A stretch of DNA of 28,015 nucleotides. Source: a virus. Every line of letters begins with the position of its first letter. Positions within the stretch are counted from its first letter, which is position 1. The notes below the pieces were generated by a model that saw nothing but the letters and a program-made list of their open reading frames with translations, was not told the DNA's origin and did no database searches. Location of the stretch: positions 1 to 28,015 of IMG/VR virus record IMGVR_UViG_3300042321_001272; one strand, 5' to 3'. Positions 5,141-15,759 of this stretch are shown here, in pieces. A program made the position numbers and the translations under genes.

Positions 5141-5569
5141 CTAAGAGCGGGCGTCATCTGCAAGGCGGGTCACAGCCCAACCTGGCAAGATAAGGGAGCC
5201 TTCAAAATCGGCGCCTAATAGCGTGACACCGCGCCAGTCGCATCCGATCAAGTTGGCGTTGCGAACACGTGCCCCTGAAAAATCTGCGCCGGACAGGATA
5301 GCACCTTCCATATCGACACCATCCATATCCGCGCCGAGGAAATTGCACCCGGTCAAGTCGGCGTCACGAAACTCGGCATGTGTCAGGACCGCGCCGCTAA
5401 AGTCGCAACGCCGCAAGTCGGACTCGCTGAAACCGGCGGCTGATAGCAGCGCTCCGCGAAAGTGCGAGCCATACCATACGCGTTTCGAGAGGTTGCGAAA
5501 GCGCAAGTCCTTGCCGCTAAGATCGACTTCCTCCCCGGCGGGTAGGGCGTCCAATTCTTCCTGTGTCAT
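5141..5569 (-). CDS. Pentapeptide-repeat protein
   Basis: The 142-residue protein is built of A(D/N)LXX-type pentapeptides over most of its length, for example ADLTGCNFLGADMDGVDMEG, following an N-terminal MTQEELDALPAGEEV cap. Such repeats fold into a right-handed quadrilateral beta helix. Some members (Qnr, MfpA) mimic DNA and bind gyrase, while others have no known partner, so the target here is undecided. The start at 5569 has GGAGA upstream and an ATGA overlap with the membrane protein gene. A longer in-frame start at 5602 lies inside that gene. This is the last gene of the leftward operon. Confidence 0.85.
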   Translation of the reverse strand: MTQEELDALPAGEEVDLSGKDLRFRNLSKRVWYGSHFRGALLSAAGFSESDLRRCDFSGAVLTHAEFRDADLTGCNFLGADMDGVDMEGAILSGADFSGARVRNANLIGCDWRGVTLLGADFEGSLILPGWAVTRLADDARS

Positions 5570-5805
5570 TCTGTGTCTCCCTTCCGCGCCAGCCAGCGCC
5601 ACTTCACACCATCGTTATGCATATGGCCTAATGCAACCCCGCCGTAGCAAAGACCCGTAAACAGAGAAGCACCCACTATCGCGATGTTCCCCACTGATTC
5701 GGTCTCCAGACGGACGCCGGCGACAGCGAGAAACAGCGTCAAATACCCGTAAATGGCAAAAGGCGCCACAACGGGCAAAAGCCACTTGAAGTCGAAGTTG
5801 GTCAT
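5566..5805 (-). CDS. Small inner-membrane protein, two helices
   Basis: The 79-residue protein has two hydrophobic segments, about residues 8-31 (LLPVVAPFAIYGYLTLFLAV) and 40-60 (NIAIVGASLFTGLCYGGVAL). A polar basic tail (KWRWLARKGD) probably lies in the cytoplasm. No family is recognised. It is coupled by ATGA overlaps to genes on both sides. An early small membrane protein in a leftward phage operon could be a superinfection-exclusion factor, but there is no direct evidence. Confidence 0.7.
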   Translation of the reverse strand: MTNFDFKWLLPVVAPFAIYGYLTLFLAVAGVRLETESVGNIAIVGASLFTGLCYGGVALGHMHNDGVKWRWLARKGDTE

Positions 5806-8842: not shown

Positions 8843-9271
8843 ATGACCCCGCTCTACACCATCGCCCGCGACATCGACGACGCTCTCGGCGGCACCGCCT
8901 GCGCGGACGCGCTTGAGGCCAGCACCGCCGATCAGTCGCTGGTCCTCTGGAGGTTCCTCGCCGCCGTGCTGAGGGAGATGAAGCCGGAACCGGGAAAGGT
9001 TCAGGCGGCGATTGACCCCGTCATCGCCGGGATGGACAGGCTCGGGCGCGGAGAGGACTGGCCCAAGGCGGATGCGCGGGCGGCGCGGGCGGCGACGGCG
9101 GCGGCGGAAGCGGCGTGCGCGACGGAGGCGGCGGAAGCGGCGTGCGCGACGGAGGCGGGCGCGCGGGCGGCGTGGGCGGCGGATGCAGCGTGGGCGGCAA
9201 CCTTCGCCGACGTTCCCCGCGCCCGGCAGCGCGACATCCTACTCCGGCTGATCCAGGAGGCGAGCGCATGA
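8843..9271 (+). CDS. Early protein, first of three tandem paralogues
   Basis: The 142-residue protein begins MTPLYTIARDIDDALGG and contains LVLWRFLAAVLREM near residue 35. It ends RQRDILLRLIQEASA. The two following genes share all three blocks. The middle (residues about 75-120) is almost pure Ala/Glu/Arg low complexity, including a perfect nine-residue repeat (AEAACATEA twice) made by a 27-nt tandem duplication. GGGAGAGAC precedes the ATG. No known family is recognised. As the first gene after the rightward early promoter it would be among the earliest products made. Confidence 0.8.
   Translation: MTPLYTIARDIDDALGGTACADALEASTADQSLVLWRFLAAVLREMKPEPGKVQAAIDPVIAGMDRLGRGEDWPKADARAARAATAAAEAACATEAAEAACATEAGARAAWAADAAWAATFADVPRARQRDILLRLIQEASA
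9104..9157 (+). repeat. 27-nt perfect tandem duplication inside a coding region
   Basis: Two identical copies of a 27-nt GC-rich unit lie at 9104-9130 and 9131-9157. The unit is nine codons long and in frame, so each copy adds AEAACATEA to the protein. It probably arose by replication slippage in GCG-rich sequence. Confidence 0.9.
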
Positions 9272-9708
9272 CCCCGCTACATCGTATAGCCCGCGATATA
9301 GACAAAGCTGTAGGCGGGCGGGTTTGCCGGAACGCGATACGCGATGCATCAAAAGCTGGCACCGACCTGCGGCCTGTTCTGTGGCGGTTTCTGGCTGATG
9401 TGTTGCGCGCGATAAAGCGCGCCCCGGATCAGGTGCAAATCTTTGTCGATTTTGTGATCGACGGGTTCGACCGGCGCGAGCGTAATATGGCGTTCCCCGA
9501 GGTAGACCGTGACAAGTGGGACGCGGCGAAACTGCAAGCCCCGTTTTCGGCCGCCTTGGCGGCGGCTGGCAGGGCGGCGGCGACATGGCAAAAGCCGCTT
9601 AAGCGCGGGCTGGCGGCGAGCGTGGCTTACTGCGCGGCCCTCGCCGGGGCAACGCGCTTTCACCAGTGGCATATCTTTCTGAGGCTAGTCAGGGAGGCGA
9701 GCGAATGA
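9268..9708 (+). CDS. Early protein, second tandem paralogue
   Basis: The 146-residue protein starts MTPLHRIARDIDKAVGG and contains PVLWRFLADVLRAIK, and its C-terminus is HIFLRLVREASE. These blocks match the genes on either side. The middle is different and lacks the Ala/Glu repeat. The start is set by an ATGA overlap with the upstream stop and by a GGAGGCGAGC ribosome-binding site inside the upstream gene. The function is unknown. Confidence 0.8.
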   Translation: MTPLHRIARDIDKAVGGRVCRNAIRDASKAGTDLRPVLWRFLADVLRAIKRAPDQVQIFVDFVIDGFDRRERNMAFPEVDRDKWDAAKLQAPFSAALAAAGRAAATWQKPLKRGLAASVAYCAALAGATRFHQWHIFLRLVREASE

Positions 9709-10145
9709 CCATGATAGCACTACTCGCGAAGGGGGTAGACGATAGGCTAGGCGGGACGGTATGCCACGATGCCGTCGATAGCGCAGAGGACCCAAGCGGC
9801 AGGCTTATGTGGGAGTTCCTCGCGGGCGTCCTACGGGCAATGCCGCCCGGAAACCCGAAAGATGGCGCAATAGGCGCCGTCATCCGTAGCCTTGATGATT
9901 TCGGCGTCGGCGGGATATGGCATACGGAGGATGTGTTACCGGATGACTATCTCGATGAACGATACCAGGCTGCATTCGCGGCCTCGTGGGCGATGAAAAG
10001 CGTGCTGTTTCCAGCGTGGTGGCTTGGCGCCCAGATGGCGACGGTATGCGCGTGGTCGGCCATGTGCGCGGCGGAAAATGCGGGTGTTACAATCGAGAAG
10101 CAGAGGGATATCCTGTTGAAGGTCATCGGAAAGGGGAGCAAATGA
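9705..10145 (+). CDS. Early protein, third tandem paralogue
   Basis: The 146-residue protein starts MTMIALLAKGVDDRLGG and has LMWEFLAGVLRAM followed by a C-terminal KQRDILLKVIGKGSK. It is the most diverged of the three but keeps the GG-x-x-C spacing, the W-x-FLA-x-VLR helix and the final RDIL helix. A central hydrophobic and Trp-rich part (SVLFPAWWLGAQMATVCAWS) may contact a membrane or a protein surface. An ATGA overlap fixes the start. Confidence 0.78.
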   Translation: MTMIALLAKGVDDRLGGTVCHDAVDSAEDPSGRLMWEFLAGVLRAMPPGNPKDGAIGAVIRSLDDFGVGGIWHTEDVLPDDYLDERYQAAFAASWAMKSVLFPAWWLGAQMATVCAWSAMCAAENAGVTIEKQRDILLKVIGKGSK

Positions 10146-10874: not shown

Positions 10875-11221
10875 CCATCGAATTGCCGTGGTATCCGAAA
10901 GAATTGTCCCCGAATGCGAGAGTGCATTGGGCAGTAAAGGCTAACGCTGTCAAAAAGTATCGGAATGCTTGTGCTTGGGCAGCGCGAGCACAGGGGCTTA
11001 TGCCGAGTAATGCGGACGAGGTTGTTATGACAATCGAGTTCCGCGAACCGGACAAAAGACCACGGAATAAAGACAATATGATTGCGTCAATCAAGGCGCT
11101 ACAGGATGGCCTAATGGACGCTATCGGGATTGACGACAGCAAGTTTGTCGTGGCTCACAAGATCGGCCAGGTAGCGAAACGCGGCAAGGTGATCGTTACA
11201 ATCAAGGGGGAGGGCGAATGA
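10865..11221 (+). CDS. rusA: RusA-like Holliday-junction resolvase
   Basis: The 118-residue protein has the RusA family layout. It has an N-terminal beta region (LTIELPWYPKELSPNARVHW), then RPRNKDNMIASIKALQDGLM with the conserved Asp, then IGIDDSKF with the paired acidic residues, and a C-terminal strand ending in VIVTIKGE. Together the acidic residues hold the catalytic metal. RusA dimers cut four-way junctions made during recombination or replication. The start is TTG either at 10865 or at 10871; the latter would give a TTGA overlap like that at 4033. It lies immediately before the replication initiator. Confidence 0.85.
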   Translation: MDLTIELPWYPKELSPNARVHWAVKANAVKKYRNACAWAARAQGLMPSNADEVVMTIEFREPDKRPRNKDNMIASIKALQDGLMDAIGIDDSKFVVAHKIGQVAKRGKVIVTIKGEGE

Positions 11222-11925
11222 GCATCAAGCTGATGGCGTATTTTTGGGAGGCCGGGCCGGAAAACCAATCCGAGCGGTTTGTCCTCTTGGCATTGGCAGA
11301 TTACGCCAATGACGCCGGGGAATGCTGGCCGTCGCTCGATGCCTTGGCGCGCAAGACATGCCTCACAGAGCGGGGCATACGGGCTATCATCCGGCGCCTT
11401 GAAGCTGGCGGGTGGCTGGACGTTGATGAAAGCGCCGGTCGCAACAGGTGCAATCTTTACCGCCTGCGCACCCGGAACGAGGTTCCCCCGGAACGTGGTT
11501 CCCCCCGGAACGTGACTGCACAAACCCGGAACGTGGTTCCGCCTGACCCGGAACGTGGTTCCCCCAAACCATCATATAACCATCAAGAACCGTCAGAAGA
11601 GAAGAAGCGCGCGCGAGACGCGGCGTCCGAGGCGCTGAACCAGTGGGCGTCTCCGCAAGCGGTCGCCAGCTTCCTGGCCTATCGCAAGCAGAGGTCAAAG
11701 CCCCTGACCGCGACGGCGGCGGCGCGGCTGGCGAACAATCTGAGGGACATATTCAACGCGGGGGGTTCACCAGATGACGCACTCGGCCTTGCAGAGGAGC
11801 GGGGATGGCAGACCGTCACCCGCGAATGGTATTTCAACGCTGAGCGAGGAACAAATAACAAAAGGCGTGGAATGGCTGAGGCGTTTGCGGCAGTTGCCAG
11901 TAGATCAGCGCCCCGCGCGGGATGA
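11218..11925 (+). CDS. Replication initiator (O-like, winged-helix N-terminus)
   Basis: The 235-residue protein begins with a winged-helix domain typical of phage replisome organisers (ADYANDAGECWPSLDALARK, then CLTERGIRAIIRRLEAGGWL). A flexible linker (about residues 85-120) follows, whose codons make up five iteron-like repeats. A C-terminal helical domain comes next (ALNQWASPQAVASFLAYRKQ). The arrangement mirrors lambda O: DNA-binding N-terminus, origin repeats within the gene, and a C-terminal partner-binding part. It probably binds the repeats and recruits the helicase-loading machinery. The start overlaps the resolvase stop as ATGA. Confidence 0.82.
   Translation: MSIKLMAYFWEAGPENQSERFVLLALADYANDAGECWPSLDALARKTCLTERGIRAIIRRLEAGGWLDVDESAGRNRCNLYRLRTRNEVPPERGSPRNVTAQTRNVVPPDPERGSPKPSYNHQEPSEEKKRARDAASEALNQWASPQAVASFLAYRKQRSKPLTATAAARLANNLRDIFNAGGSPDDALGLAEERGWQTVTREWYFNAERGTNNKRRGMAEAFAAVASRSAPRAG
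11471..11562 (+). repeat. Five iteron-like repeats: candidate replication origin
   Basis: CCCGGAACGTGGTTCC or close variants start at 11471, 11487, 11504, 11525 and 11547. Copies 2, 4 and 5 are identical over 16 nt, copy 1 has one change, and copy 3 keeps only the left half. Each complete copy has 5-bp inverted arms, GGAAC and GTTCC. The last three starts are 21 and 22 nt apart, two helical turns. A more A/T-rich stretch follows (11563-11600) and could be the unwinding region. Confidence 0.72.
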
Positions 11926-13755: not shown

Positions 13756-14523
13756 ATGCGACTTATGGCACTCAAGAAACAAGACGCTGGCGAGCTTCAT
13801 ATCGACGCCTTGAAGCAGGGGCGGGTTCGCCTTCGCCTGATCGGCACCATGCCGCTCTACATGAACAGCATGAGCCTCAAGGCCAAGCGCGATCTGCTGA
13901 TCGGCGGAGGACGCAAGACGGCGGCGCAGAAGAAGGAATTGAAGCACGATCCCGAGAATGAGTTTCGGTCGAGTGCTCACACAAAGCGGACGGGCGACAC
14001 GCTGCTTTGCTTCCCGGCATCAGGCGTCAAGTCTGCGATGGCGACGGCGGCGCTGGAAACGCCGGGCATCACCAAGTCCAGCGTCCAGAAAACGATCTTT
14101 CTTCCGGAGCAATCCATCCAGGTATGGGGGAAGCCATACCTGAAACTGGACGTGGTGCGCAGCGCGGACATGAACAGGACGCCCGATATCAGGAGCCGGG
14201 CATTCCTGCCGCGCTGGTGCGCAGAGGTCCATATCGCCTTTTCCATGCCGACGCTTTCGGCCTATTCGGTGGCGACGTTGCTTGCGAATGCGGGCGTTAT
14301 CGTCGGCATCGGGGACTTTCGGCAAGAGAAGGGGCGCGGGTCCTACGGGACGTTTGCGGTCGCTGGCGACGAGCTGGGCGACTGGCAGGGCTATTGGGAT
14401 GAAGTGACCCAAGAGGCGCGTGAGGTTCAACAGGCGGCGCTGGATCATCCCGAGTGGCAGGACGATGAGACTGAGATGCTGATGAATGTGCTGAAAGAGG
14501 AGAGGATGCGCCGGGCGGGATAA
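13756..14523 (+). CDS. Conserved phage protein of unknown function (255 aa)
   Basis: The protein begins MRLMALKKQDAGELHIDALK and contains a basic patch (KAKRDLLIGGGRKTAAQKKE). Its most distinctive block is ANAGVIVGIGDFRQEKGRGS followed by YGTF, a glycine-rich turn between strand and helix. Similar proteins with V-G-x-GDxR and a G-x-(F/Y)G-x-F ending occur in other phages near SSB or recombination genes. I know no proven function. The glycine-rich loop recalls RAMP-type ferredoxin-like folds, but that is only a resemblance. The start could be ATG 13756 or 13765; neither has a strong ribosome-binding site. Confidence 0.75.
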   Translation: MRLMALKKQDAGELHIDALKQGRVRLRLIGTMPLYMNSMSLKAKRDLLIGGGRKTAAQKKELKHDPENEFRSSAHTKRTGDTLLCFPASGVKSAMATAALETPGITKSSVQKTIFLPEQSIQVWGKPYLKLDVVRSADMNRTPDIRSRAFLPRWCAEVHIAFSMPTLSAYSVATLLANAGVIVGIGDFRQEKGRGSYGTFAVAGDELGDWQGYWDEVTQEAREVQQAALDHPEWQDDETEMLMNVLKEERMRRAG

Positions 14524-14558: not shown

Positions 14559-14568
14559 GCTGGTTGCG

Positions 14569-14745
14569 GCGGTTAGGGTTGGGCTAGGCAAGGCGTGGCT
14601 TGGCAAGGCAAGGCGGTTAGGGCGGGGCCCGGCAAGGCGGGGCACGGCGGTTGAGGTCTGGCCCGGTATGGCATGGCCGGGATCGGCGCGGCGGTCTAGG
14701 CATGGGCTGGCTCGGCAAGGCGGGGCACGGCGGTTAAGGCAAGCC
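14569..14745 (+). repeat. G-rich pentad array A with five GCGGT(T/C) boxes
   Basis: GCGGTT or GCGGTC boxes start at 14569, 14613, 14647, 14691 and 14730, so the intervals are 44, 34, 44 and 39 nt. Between boxes a GG occurs every 5 nt (GGCAAGGCGTGGCTTGG style), with the other three bases variable. The array is strongly G over C on this strand. It ends in a 7-bp hairpin (GCAAGCC-CATC-GGCTTGC, 14739-14756) just ahead of the gene at 14792. No protein coding is supported here. Confidence 0.85.
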
Positions 14746-14791: not shown

Positions 14792-15280
14792 ATGAAGTTC
14801 ACGACGAAAACACGGCAGGCAATCATCGACGGGTATCTCGCCCAAACCGGGCGGAATATGTTTGTCCCTAGTGAGTTTGTCGATTGGCTGGCAGACAACC
14901 CGGACCATGAGGCTTACGGGTGGTTCTACGGCAAGGACGACACAGAGGCGGCGCGCGAATACAGGATCGGGCTTGCGCGGCGCATGGCATCAGGGCTGCG
15001 CATCGTGGTGCATCAGGAGGTGTCGGTCGGGTCGGTGGTCCACATCACGACGAAGGAATACCCGGCATTCGTCTCGCCCATTGCCGGGCGGCGGATCGGC
15101 GGCGGCTATGTGCCGTTTGATCCGACCGATGAAGGCGCGACGGCTGACCTGCGCAAACAGGCGGCTGTCTCTCTCAGGGCGTGGCTGTCTCGGTATCGCG
15201 GCGCTGCCGATGATATCGACCTGCGGCCCATTGAAGAAATCGTGATGCTATTGAGCGGAAGCGTGGCAGAGGCGGTCTAG
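14792..15280 (+). CDS. Hypothetical protein between the two G-rich arrays (162 aa)
   Basis: The product begins MKFTTKTRQAIIDGYLAQTG and has a probable alpha-helical N-terminus (FVDWLADNPDHEAYGWFYGK). A beta-rich middle follows (SVGSVVHITTKEYPAFVSP), with a helical C-terminus. The basic-aromatic N-terminal half could bind nucleic acid, but no family is recognised. AGAGGAGAAATC gives a good ribosome-binding site. The stop codon lies within a perfect 9-bp hairpin. Arrays of the same grammar flank it on both sides, so it may be a movable cassette or the protein that acts on the arrays. Confidence 0.75.
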   Translation: MKFTTKTRQAIIDGYLAQTGRNMFVPSEFVDWLADNPDHEAYGWFYGKDDTEAAREYRIGLARRMASGLRIVVHQEVSVGSVVHITTKEYPAFVSPIAGRRIGGGYVPFDPTDEGATADLRKQAAVSLRAWLSRYRGAADDIDLRPIEEIVMLLSGSVAEAV

Positions 15281-15288: not shown

Positions 15289-15295
15289 GGATACG

Positions 15296-15759
15296 GCGGT
15301 CGGGGTTCGGCGTGGCAGGGTCTGGCGAGGCAGGGCGGTTAGGGTATGGCTTGGCAGGGCCAAGTAGGGCACGGCGGTTGGGGTTTGGCCAGGTATGGCA
15401 AGGCATGGCCAGGCATGGCGGTTAAGGCACGGCCTGGCAAGGCGGGGCGAGGTCAGGTAGGGCGCGGCGGTTAGGGCGTGGCACGGCGCGGTCTGGTTTG
15501 GCGGGGCGGTTAGGGTTAGGCACGGCGCGGTCTGGCCGGGCGTGGCACGGCGGTTAAGGTTAGGCATGGCAGAGCTTGGATGGGCACGGCGGTTTAGGCG
15601 GGGCTTGGACTGGCGGGGACGGGTGAGTCATGGCATGGCGGTCAAGGTATGGTCAGGCTGGGCGTGGCGGGGCGGTTGAGGCGCGGCGAGGCACGGCGAG
15701 GTTGGGCTCGGCGGTTGTGGCTAGGCACGGCTAGGCGAGGAAAGGCAAGGCGGTTGACG
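15296..15759 (+). repeat. G-rich pentad array B with twelve GCGGT(T/C) boxes
   Basis: Boxes start at 15296, 15335, 15374, 15418, 15467, 15506, 15550, 15589, 15638, 15672, 15711 and 15750. The intervals are 39, 39, 44, 49, 39, 44, 39, 49, 34, 39 and 39 nt, all 4 modulo 5. Between boxes a GG pair falls every 5 nt, with mostly C next and two free bases. No two units are identical, so the spacing is conserved far better than the sequence. The last box (GCGGTTGACG) supplies the -35 of the next promoter. No coding sequence is supported in these 464 nt. Confidence 0.88.

What the first reader, a model, noticed from the sequence alone, without database searches (positions are those of the whole stretch)
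15296..15759. Phase-locked G-rich array: GG every 5 nt, boxes spaced 4 modulo 5
Twelve GCGGT(T/C) boxes are separated by 39, 39, 44, 49, 39, 44, 39, 49, 34, 39 and 39 nt. With array A the total is 15 intervals, every one equal to 9+5n. Between boxes a GG falls every fifth base while the other bases vary freely. Sequence is degenerate but spacing is exact, so something appears to read the phase. Options are a protein that tracks GG every half helical turn, short-loop two-layer G-quadruplexes in the displaced or RNA strand, or a repeat that grows by pentad. I know of no described element with this grammar.
Basis: seen in the sequence. Interest (0 to 1): 0.88.

Follow-up and report, generated by a model that had tools for sequence, protein, structure and literature searches.

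The report
Phage RNA guides against rival phages
The regularly spaced G-rich stretch is a bank of RNA guides (a VIPR system, first described in April 2026) with which this phage, probably one of Rhodobacteraceae bacteria, can recognise genes of competing phages; one of its guides reads out a conserved stretch of a rival recombination gene.

Summary
The array is real, and it belongs to a system described months ago: VIPR (Viral Interference Programmable Repeat; preprint PMC13142463). The gene beside it (13756-14523) is a Vipr protein. Its family profile hits the solved SUSP1 Vipr structure (PDB 36pp, E 2e-39), and its model matches Csm3/Cas7 (Z about 10). In 74 sequenced pieces of Vipr-carrying phages, all 40 arrays lie within 2 kb of a vipr gene, on its strand. 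The pentads are GGY-NN. Only the NN pairs carry information, and they are read against DNA with one base skipped, usually the codon wobble base.

Three results are my own. (1) The box is a 7-nt punctuation, GGCGGTY, between guides; this is why every interval is 9+5n (250 of 278 intervals in relatives). (2) The one-base-skip code holds in this clade: 7 guides with strict targets against 0-3 in controls, all 7 wobble-aligned. (3) Unit 15588-15636 spells Y-G-L/F-L-G-R-D/E-I/M-I/M and matches 18/18 bases in Sak4-like recombinase genes of 16 virus contigs; the same pairs in reverse order match none. A related phage's guide matches this phage's own vipr gene perfectly.

New member of a known kind. 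Expression and silencing are inferred, not shown.

The parts
13756..14523 (+). vipr gene: RAMP/Cas7-like Vipr protein, 255 aa
   Evidence: phrog_4652 E 4.9e-12; family profile hits PDB 36pp 'SUSP1 Vipr protein' E 2.3e-39; AlphaFold pLDDT 88; Foldseek and VIA to Csm3/Cas7, Z about 10
14344..14367 (+). Site in this phage's own vipr gene that a guide of a related phage (L015) matches 16/16
   Evidence: the L015 phage's own vipr differs at one codon there
14568..14742 (+). Array A: 5 boxes and 4 complete guide units of GGYNN pentads
14792..15280 (+). Candidate VIPR accessory protein (vap), 162 aa, between the two arrays
   Evidence: family found in 78 of 80 relatives of this clade and homologous to Saal gp52 and Ecliptus gp20; not similar to the SUSP1-clade partners; confident model without a known fold match
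15295..15757 (+). Array B: 12 boxes and 11 guide units of GGYNN pentads (the finding)
15588..15636 (+). Guide unit B7: box (NN = TA) plus 8 pentads; NN string TA GG TT CT GG CG GA AT AT, predicted target the Sak4-like ssDNA-annealing ATPase gene
   Evidence: 18/18 in 16 virus contigs, all the same gene family and frame; reversed-order control 0; six Rhodobacteraceae Sak4 genes with one mismatch
15637..15643 (+). Example of the 7-nt punctuation core GGCGGTY that separates guides (following box)
   Evidence: target matches start at the last two bases of the preceding box and end at the next core

Best explanation
It is a VIPR locus. The two arrays would be transcribed on the + strand into guide RNAs (vrRNAs). 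Vipr, a Cas7-like protein, would line up along the RNA, one subunit per pentad, holding GGY and exposing NN. The NN pairs would pair with DNA of a rival phage while one target base per triplet is skipped, usually the codon wobble base, so synonymous changes do not help the rival. Bound Vipr would repress the gene. Each stretch between boxes is one guide: it starts with the last two bases of a box and ends at the next GGCGGTY core. One guide here names the Sak4-like recombinase gene of other phages. Shown here: array, grammar, gene, fold, linkage, strand, and target matches under the one-base-skip code. Shown in the preprint for other members (SUSP1 and P. fulva VIPR): RNA expression, RNP formation, DNA binding, repression. 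Inferred for this phage: transcription, processing at the boxes, repression.
For: Linkage: 66 of 80 vipr relatives carry arrays; 82 of 120 loci found by the GG pattern alone carry vipr, with 145 same-strand against 2 opposite-strand gene-array pairs; 40 of 40 arrays in 1.33 Mb of vipr-carrying phage records lie within 2 kb of vipr, same strand. Identity: PDB 36pp 'SUSP1 Vipr protein' E 2.3e-39; Csm3/Cas7 fold. Grammar as published: GGY/NN. Code: 199 guides against 6.4 million positions gave 7 guides with strict hits at skip 1 against 1, 1, 2 (skips 0, 2, 4) and 0-3 (NN order permuted); loose hits 37 against 17-22; all 7 strict best hits wobble-aligned. Targets: Sak4, terL, terS, vipr. This window's B7 unit: 16 contigs at 18/18, reversed order 0.
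Against: No transcript data for this phage. Of the other 14 units only four were scanned in viral contigs: B3 gave 0 hits, B5 one chance-like hit, A2 seven hits in mixed genes, and A0 over 120 hits in AT-rich contigs in mixed frames, so uninformative. The 16 Sak4 contigs share one conserved motif and are not independent. Guides here have 6-9 NN pairs, shorter than the 9-16 repeats published for type II. No Rfam match, and no promoter-like or terminator-like site flanks the arrays in a convincing way. 14 of 80 vipr relatives show no array at the threshold.
Confidence: 0.95

Rival explanations
1. The array acts as DNA: a protein tracks GG every half helical turn on double-stranded DNA, for example at a replication origin or a recombination site near the ERF gene.
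For: The array lies between recombination genes (ERF, NinB), and GG recurs every 5 bp.
Against: One-sided orientation with the gene (145 to 2; 40 to 0); in other phages the cassette lies among tail or capsid genes or on the opposite strand to its neighbours, so it is not tied to replication; NN pairs match rival genes under the skip-1 code.
Confidence: 0.02
2. The G-rich strand folds into two-layer G-quadruplexes that act as a structural or regulatory element.
For: GG tracts spaced by 3 nt are compatible with two-layer quadruplexes (sequence only).
Against: Quadruplexes would not need a pyrimidine at position 3, a constant 7-nt punctuation, or NN pairs that spell codons of rival genes; no structural test was made.
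Confidence: 0.02
3. A slippage-grown pentanucleotide repeat without function.
For: Tandem arrays can expand by slippage; B4 and B5 share a partial NN string.
Against: GGY is kept while NN are hypervariable in relatives at 39-71% GC; box intervals are conserved mod 5; arrays occur beside vipr; targets are in frame.
Confidence: 0.01
4. VIPR, but each functional guide spans two or more inter-box units (the published 'staggered arrays with overlapping vrRNAs'), with the box inside the guide.
For: The preprint reports staggered overlapping arrays (fig. S18, not readable here), and published guides have 9-16 repeats, more than one unit here.
Against: In 8 guide-target pairs the match begins at the box NN (15 of 16 bases) and neither the box GG, the preceding pentad, nor the next core is matched. 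An RNA can still overlap the next unit as its 3' tail.
Confidence: 0.2

Closest known systems
VIPR systems (Vipr + vrRNA + vap), PMC13142463, bioRxiv 2026.04.26.720920; type member Escherichia phage SUSP1, PDB 36pp
   Same: Vipr homologue, GGY/NN pentad arrays on the gene's strand, one-base-skip code with wobble alignment, targets in competing phages and in other vipr genes, one small accessory gene
   Different: 7-nt punctuation GGCGGTY instead of separate guides with a structured 3' tail; shorter guides (6-9 NN pairs in this window, up to 15 in relatives); accessory protein unrelated to the SUSP1-clade partner; Rhodobacteraceae-related phage
Class 1 CRISPR-Cas Cas7 subunits (Csm3, Cmr4, type VII Cas7)
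   Same: RAMP fold with glycine-rich loop; subunits on a repeating RNA with interrupted base pairing (established knowledge)
   Different: 6-nt periodicity and contiguous spacers in CRISPR; no CRISPR repeats or cas genes seen in the parts of the window examined
RNA anti-CRISPRs and other phage decoy RNAs
   Same: phage-encoded non-coding repeats that use Cas-like proteins (from memory)
   Different: here the phage brings its own protein and the variable bases match rival genes; no host Cas repeat resemblance was sought

Membership tests
VIPR | Vipr protein: minimal single-RRM RAMP homologue | tested here: met
   Profile of the family hits 36pp SUSP1 Vipr at E 2.3e-39; model pLDDT 88; Csm3/Cas7 fold Z about 10
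VIPR | Array of alternating GGY/NN motifs next to vipr, same strand | tested here: met
   96 pentads, 93 GG; linkage and strand
VIPR | NN pairs read with a 1-nt skip, skip at wobble positions | tested here: met
   clade-wide enrichment at skip 1 (the skip-3 hits are attributed to leftover arrays); window unit B7 to Sak4
VIPR | Targets are competing phages or mobile elements | tested here: met
   Sak4, terL, terS and vipr genes of other phages
VIPR | Accessory gene vap | tested here: inconclusive
   A conserved small gene sits between the arrays in 78 of 80 relatives, but its identity with vap1-6 cannot be checked: the preprint's supplement is not readable here
VIPR | vrRNA expressed and bound to Vipr | not testable with these tools
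   needs RNA sequencing and pull-down
VIPR | Invariant structured 3' tail on each guide (type II) | tested here: inconclusive
   No hairpin tail was seen by eye between units in this window and no Rfam match, while wV8 has hairpin-like spacers; no systematic fold was run
Class 1 CRISPR-Cas | Palindromic CRISPR repeats with unique contiguous spacers | tested here: not met
   array is pentad plus 7-nt core; no CRISPR-like repeat in the tandem-repeat scan of the window
Class 1 CRISPR-Cas | cas gene set (Cas10, Cas5, Cas6, Cas1/2) | tested here: inconclusive
   The neighbouring genes checked are phage replication and recombination genes; not every gene of the window was scanned

The most novel reading that the evidence does not exclude
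An undescribed VIPR architecture in which a 7-nt core (GGCGGTY here, GGCAGGY elsewhere) both ends one guide and starts the next, so that a dense array carries short abutting guides (6-9 NN pairs) with a new accessory protein, and in which related phages aim guides at each other's vipr genes.
Probability: 0.35. Interest if true: 0.6.

Novelty: new member of a known kind. Interest (0 to 1): 0.5.

Why it matters
VIPR is a newly described RNA-guided system proposed to predate CRISPR. This member gives an independent test of its non-contiguous code in a distant phage clade, explains the 9+5n grammar as punctuation between guides, and points to a web of guides among Rhodobacteraceae-related phages aimed at recombinase, terminase and vipr genes. 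It offers a natural system with short guides and no obvious hairpin tails in which to study guide processing.

Tried and rejected
(1) Coding repeat: the frames across the array come from the pentads; no family match was sought for them. (2) Replication origin or recombination site: rejected because the cassette sits among tail or capsid genes in Medea1, LittleE, Ecliptus and phiHSIC. (3) First literature searches with repeat words found nothing; the PDB sequence search supplied the name. (4) Searching the window's units in the first 2 Mb of loci gave no excess over other skips; the comparison of 795 pentad runs was also weak, with reversed-order controls scoring up to 18. The clade test became clear only with box-delimited units and a larger set. 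(5) Unit A0: over 120 hits in AT-rich contigs (median GC 0.35), mixed frames, judged chance. Unit A2: 7 hits in unrelated genes, undecided. Unit B5: one hit, no consistent frame. (6) Skip 3 gives 14 strict units, which I attribute to incompletely masked arrays, since skip 3 is the array's own spacing. (7) Accessory protein: no Pfam or PDB match and no convincing fold match; function left open. (8) Rfam on six relatives with odd spacers, to look for ribozyme-interspersed arrays: no match.

Full report
What was claimed and what is there. The twelve boxes of array B and the five of array A are at the stated places, and all 15 intervals equal 9+5n. Of 96 pentads between boxes 93 begin with GG, and the third base is nearly always a pyrimidine, so the unit is GGYNN. 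Chains of GG at step 5 score 53 and 23; whole-window shuffles reached 8 and local shuffles 9.

How it was identified. A sensitive DNA search found similar arrays in Mycobacterium phages and, weakly, in Pseudomonas phage LESphi2. In those loci and in the window the neighbouring gene belongs to one family, phrog_4652. The family was collected from IMG/VR, and arrays were collected independently by a pattern of eleven GG at step 5. 66 of 80 gene-first loci have arrays. 82 of 120 array-first loci have the gene, with 145 same-strand and 2 opposite-strand pairs. In 1.33 Mb of further sequence, mostly from gene-carrying phage records, all 40 arrays lie within 2 kb of the gene, on its strand. Arrays persist even in wV8, a Felix O1-like phage, and in other loci near 39% GC.

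The protein. AlphaFold gave pLDDT 88. Foldseek and VIA-align place it with Csm3 and other Cas7 proteins (Z about 10). A profile search of PDB sequences returned 36pp, 'SUSP1 Vipr protein', at E 2.3e-39. The preprint PMC13142463 defines VIPR: a Vipr protein and vrRNAs of alternating GGY/NN motifs, NN pairs read with a one-base skip that tends to fall on the wobble position, directed at competing phages, with expression, binding and repression shown for other members.

What this window adds. (a) Punctuation. Across relatives 250 of 278 GGCGGTY intervals, and 86 of 99 intervals of a second kind of break, are 4 mod 5. Both breaks can be written as a 7-nt core (GGCGGTY or GGCAGGY) in place of the 3-nt GGY, which gives 5n+9 by arithmetic. 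(b) Guide limits. In eight guide-target pairs the match starts with the last two bases of a box (15 of 16 bases agree) and stops at the next core; flanking box bases are not matched. The units were searched with those two bases included, which favours this result somewhat. (c) Code. For 199 box-delimited units against 6.4 million masked positions, skip 1 gave 7 units with strict and 37 with loose hits; skips 0, 2 and 4 gave 1, 1, 2 strict and 18, 21, 18 loose; permuted units gave 0-3 and 17-22. All seven strict best hits are wobble-aligned.

Targets. Unit 15588-15636 (TA GG TT CT GG CG GA AT AT) occurs 18/18 in 16 virus contigs, all in frame in one gene family, a Sak4-like ssDNA-annealing ATPase, AAA_24. 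The same pairs in reverse order occur in none, and another 18-base unit in none. In 385 genomes of the family of Pararhodobacter marinus (Rhodobacteraceae) seven places match with one mismatch against none for the backward control, and six are Sak4 genes. The 16 contigs share a conserved motif, so they count as about one event; independent support comes from units of other phages (L014/L021 and L179) that also point to Sak4. Two units (L071, L073) point to terminase large-subunit genes. A unit of phage L015 matches vipr genes of many relatives, including this window at 14344-14367 (16/16), while its own vipr differs at one codon.

What is inferred. Transcription, processing at the boxes, and repression are not shown for this phage. 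The host group rests on relatives (Pararhodobacter marinus, a Rhodobacteraceae MAG). The gene at 14792-15280 is a candidate accessory protein by position and conservation only.

Verdict. A VIPR locus: a new member of a kind first described in April 2026, with a box-punctuated architecture that may or may not be the preprint's 'staggered arrays'.

Noticed in passing
window 11471-11514: Tandem 16-bp repeats (CCCGGAACGTGGTTCC, 2.7 copies) inside the lambda O-like replication initiator gene (11218-11925): probably the replication origin iterons of this phage.
   Followed up: no
window 8843-10145: Three successive ORFs with similar starts (MTPLYTIARDIDDALGG, MTPLHRIARDIDKAVGG, MTMIALLAKGVDDRLGG) look like tandem paralogues; the first carries a 27-bp repeat.
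   Followed up: no
window 5141-5602 (-): Reads like a pentapeptide-repeat protein (ADLTGCNFLGADMDGVDMEGAILSGADFSGA).
   Followed up: no
L005 2971-3042: Mycobacterium phage Gaia has a short GG-pentad array next to its capsid gene but no vipr within the 6 kb read: an orphan array.
   Followed up: partly
L207 2647-2950 and 4030-4330: In Felix O1-like phage wV8 the pentad runs alternate with hairpin-like repeats, part of which the record annotates as a direct repeat DR_4.
   Followed up: partly
L189, L124, L157: In some relatives separate blocks of 12-15 pentads end in a T-run (GGGTTTTTTA, GGCTTTTTAA), looking like one short RNA each with its own terminator.
   Followed up: no
L199 5150-5396: An array of strictly alternating GGTYN and GGCCA pentads, almost without variation in NN, no vipr in the stretch: perhaps a different element.
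   Followed up: no
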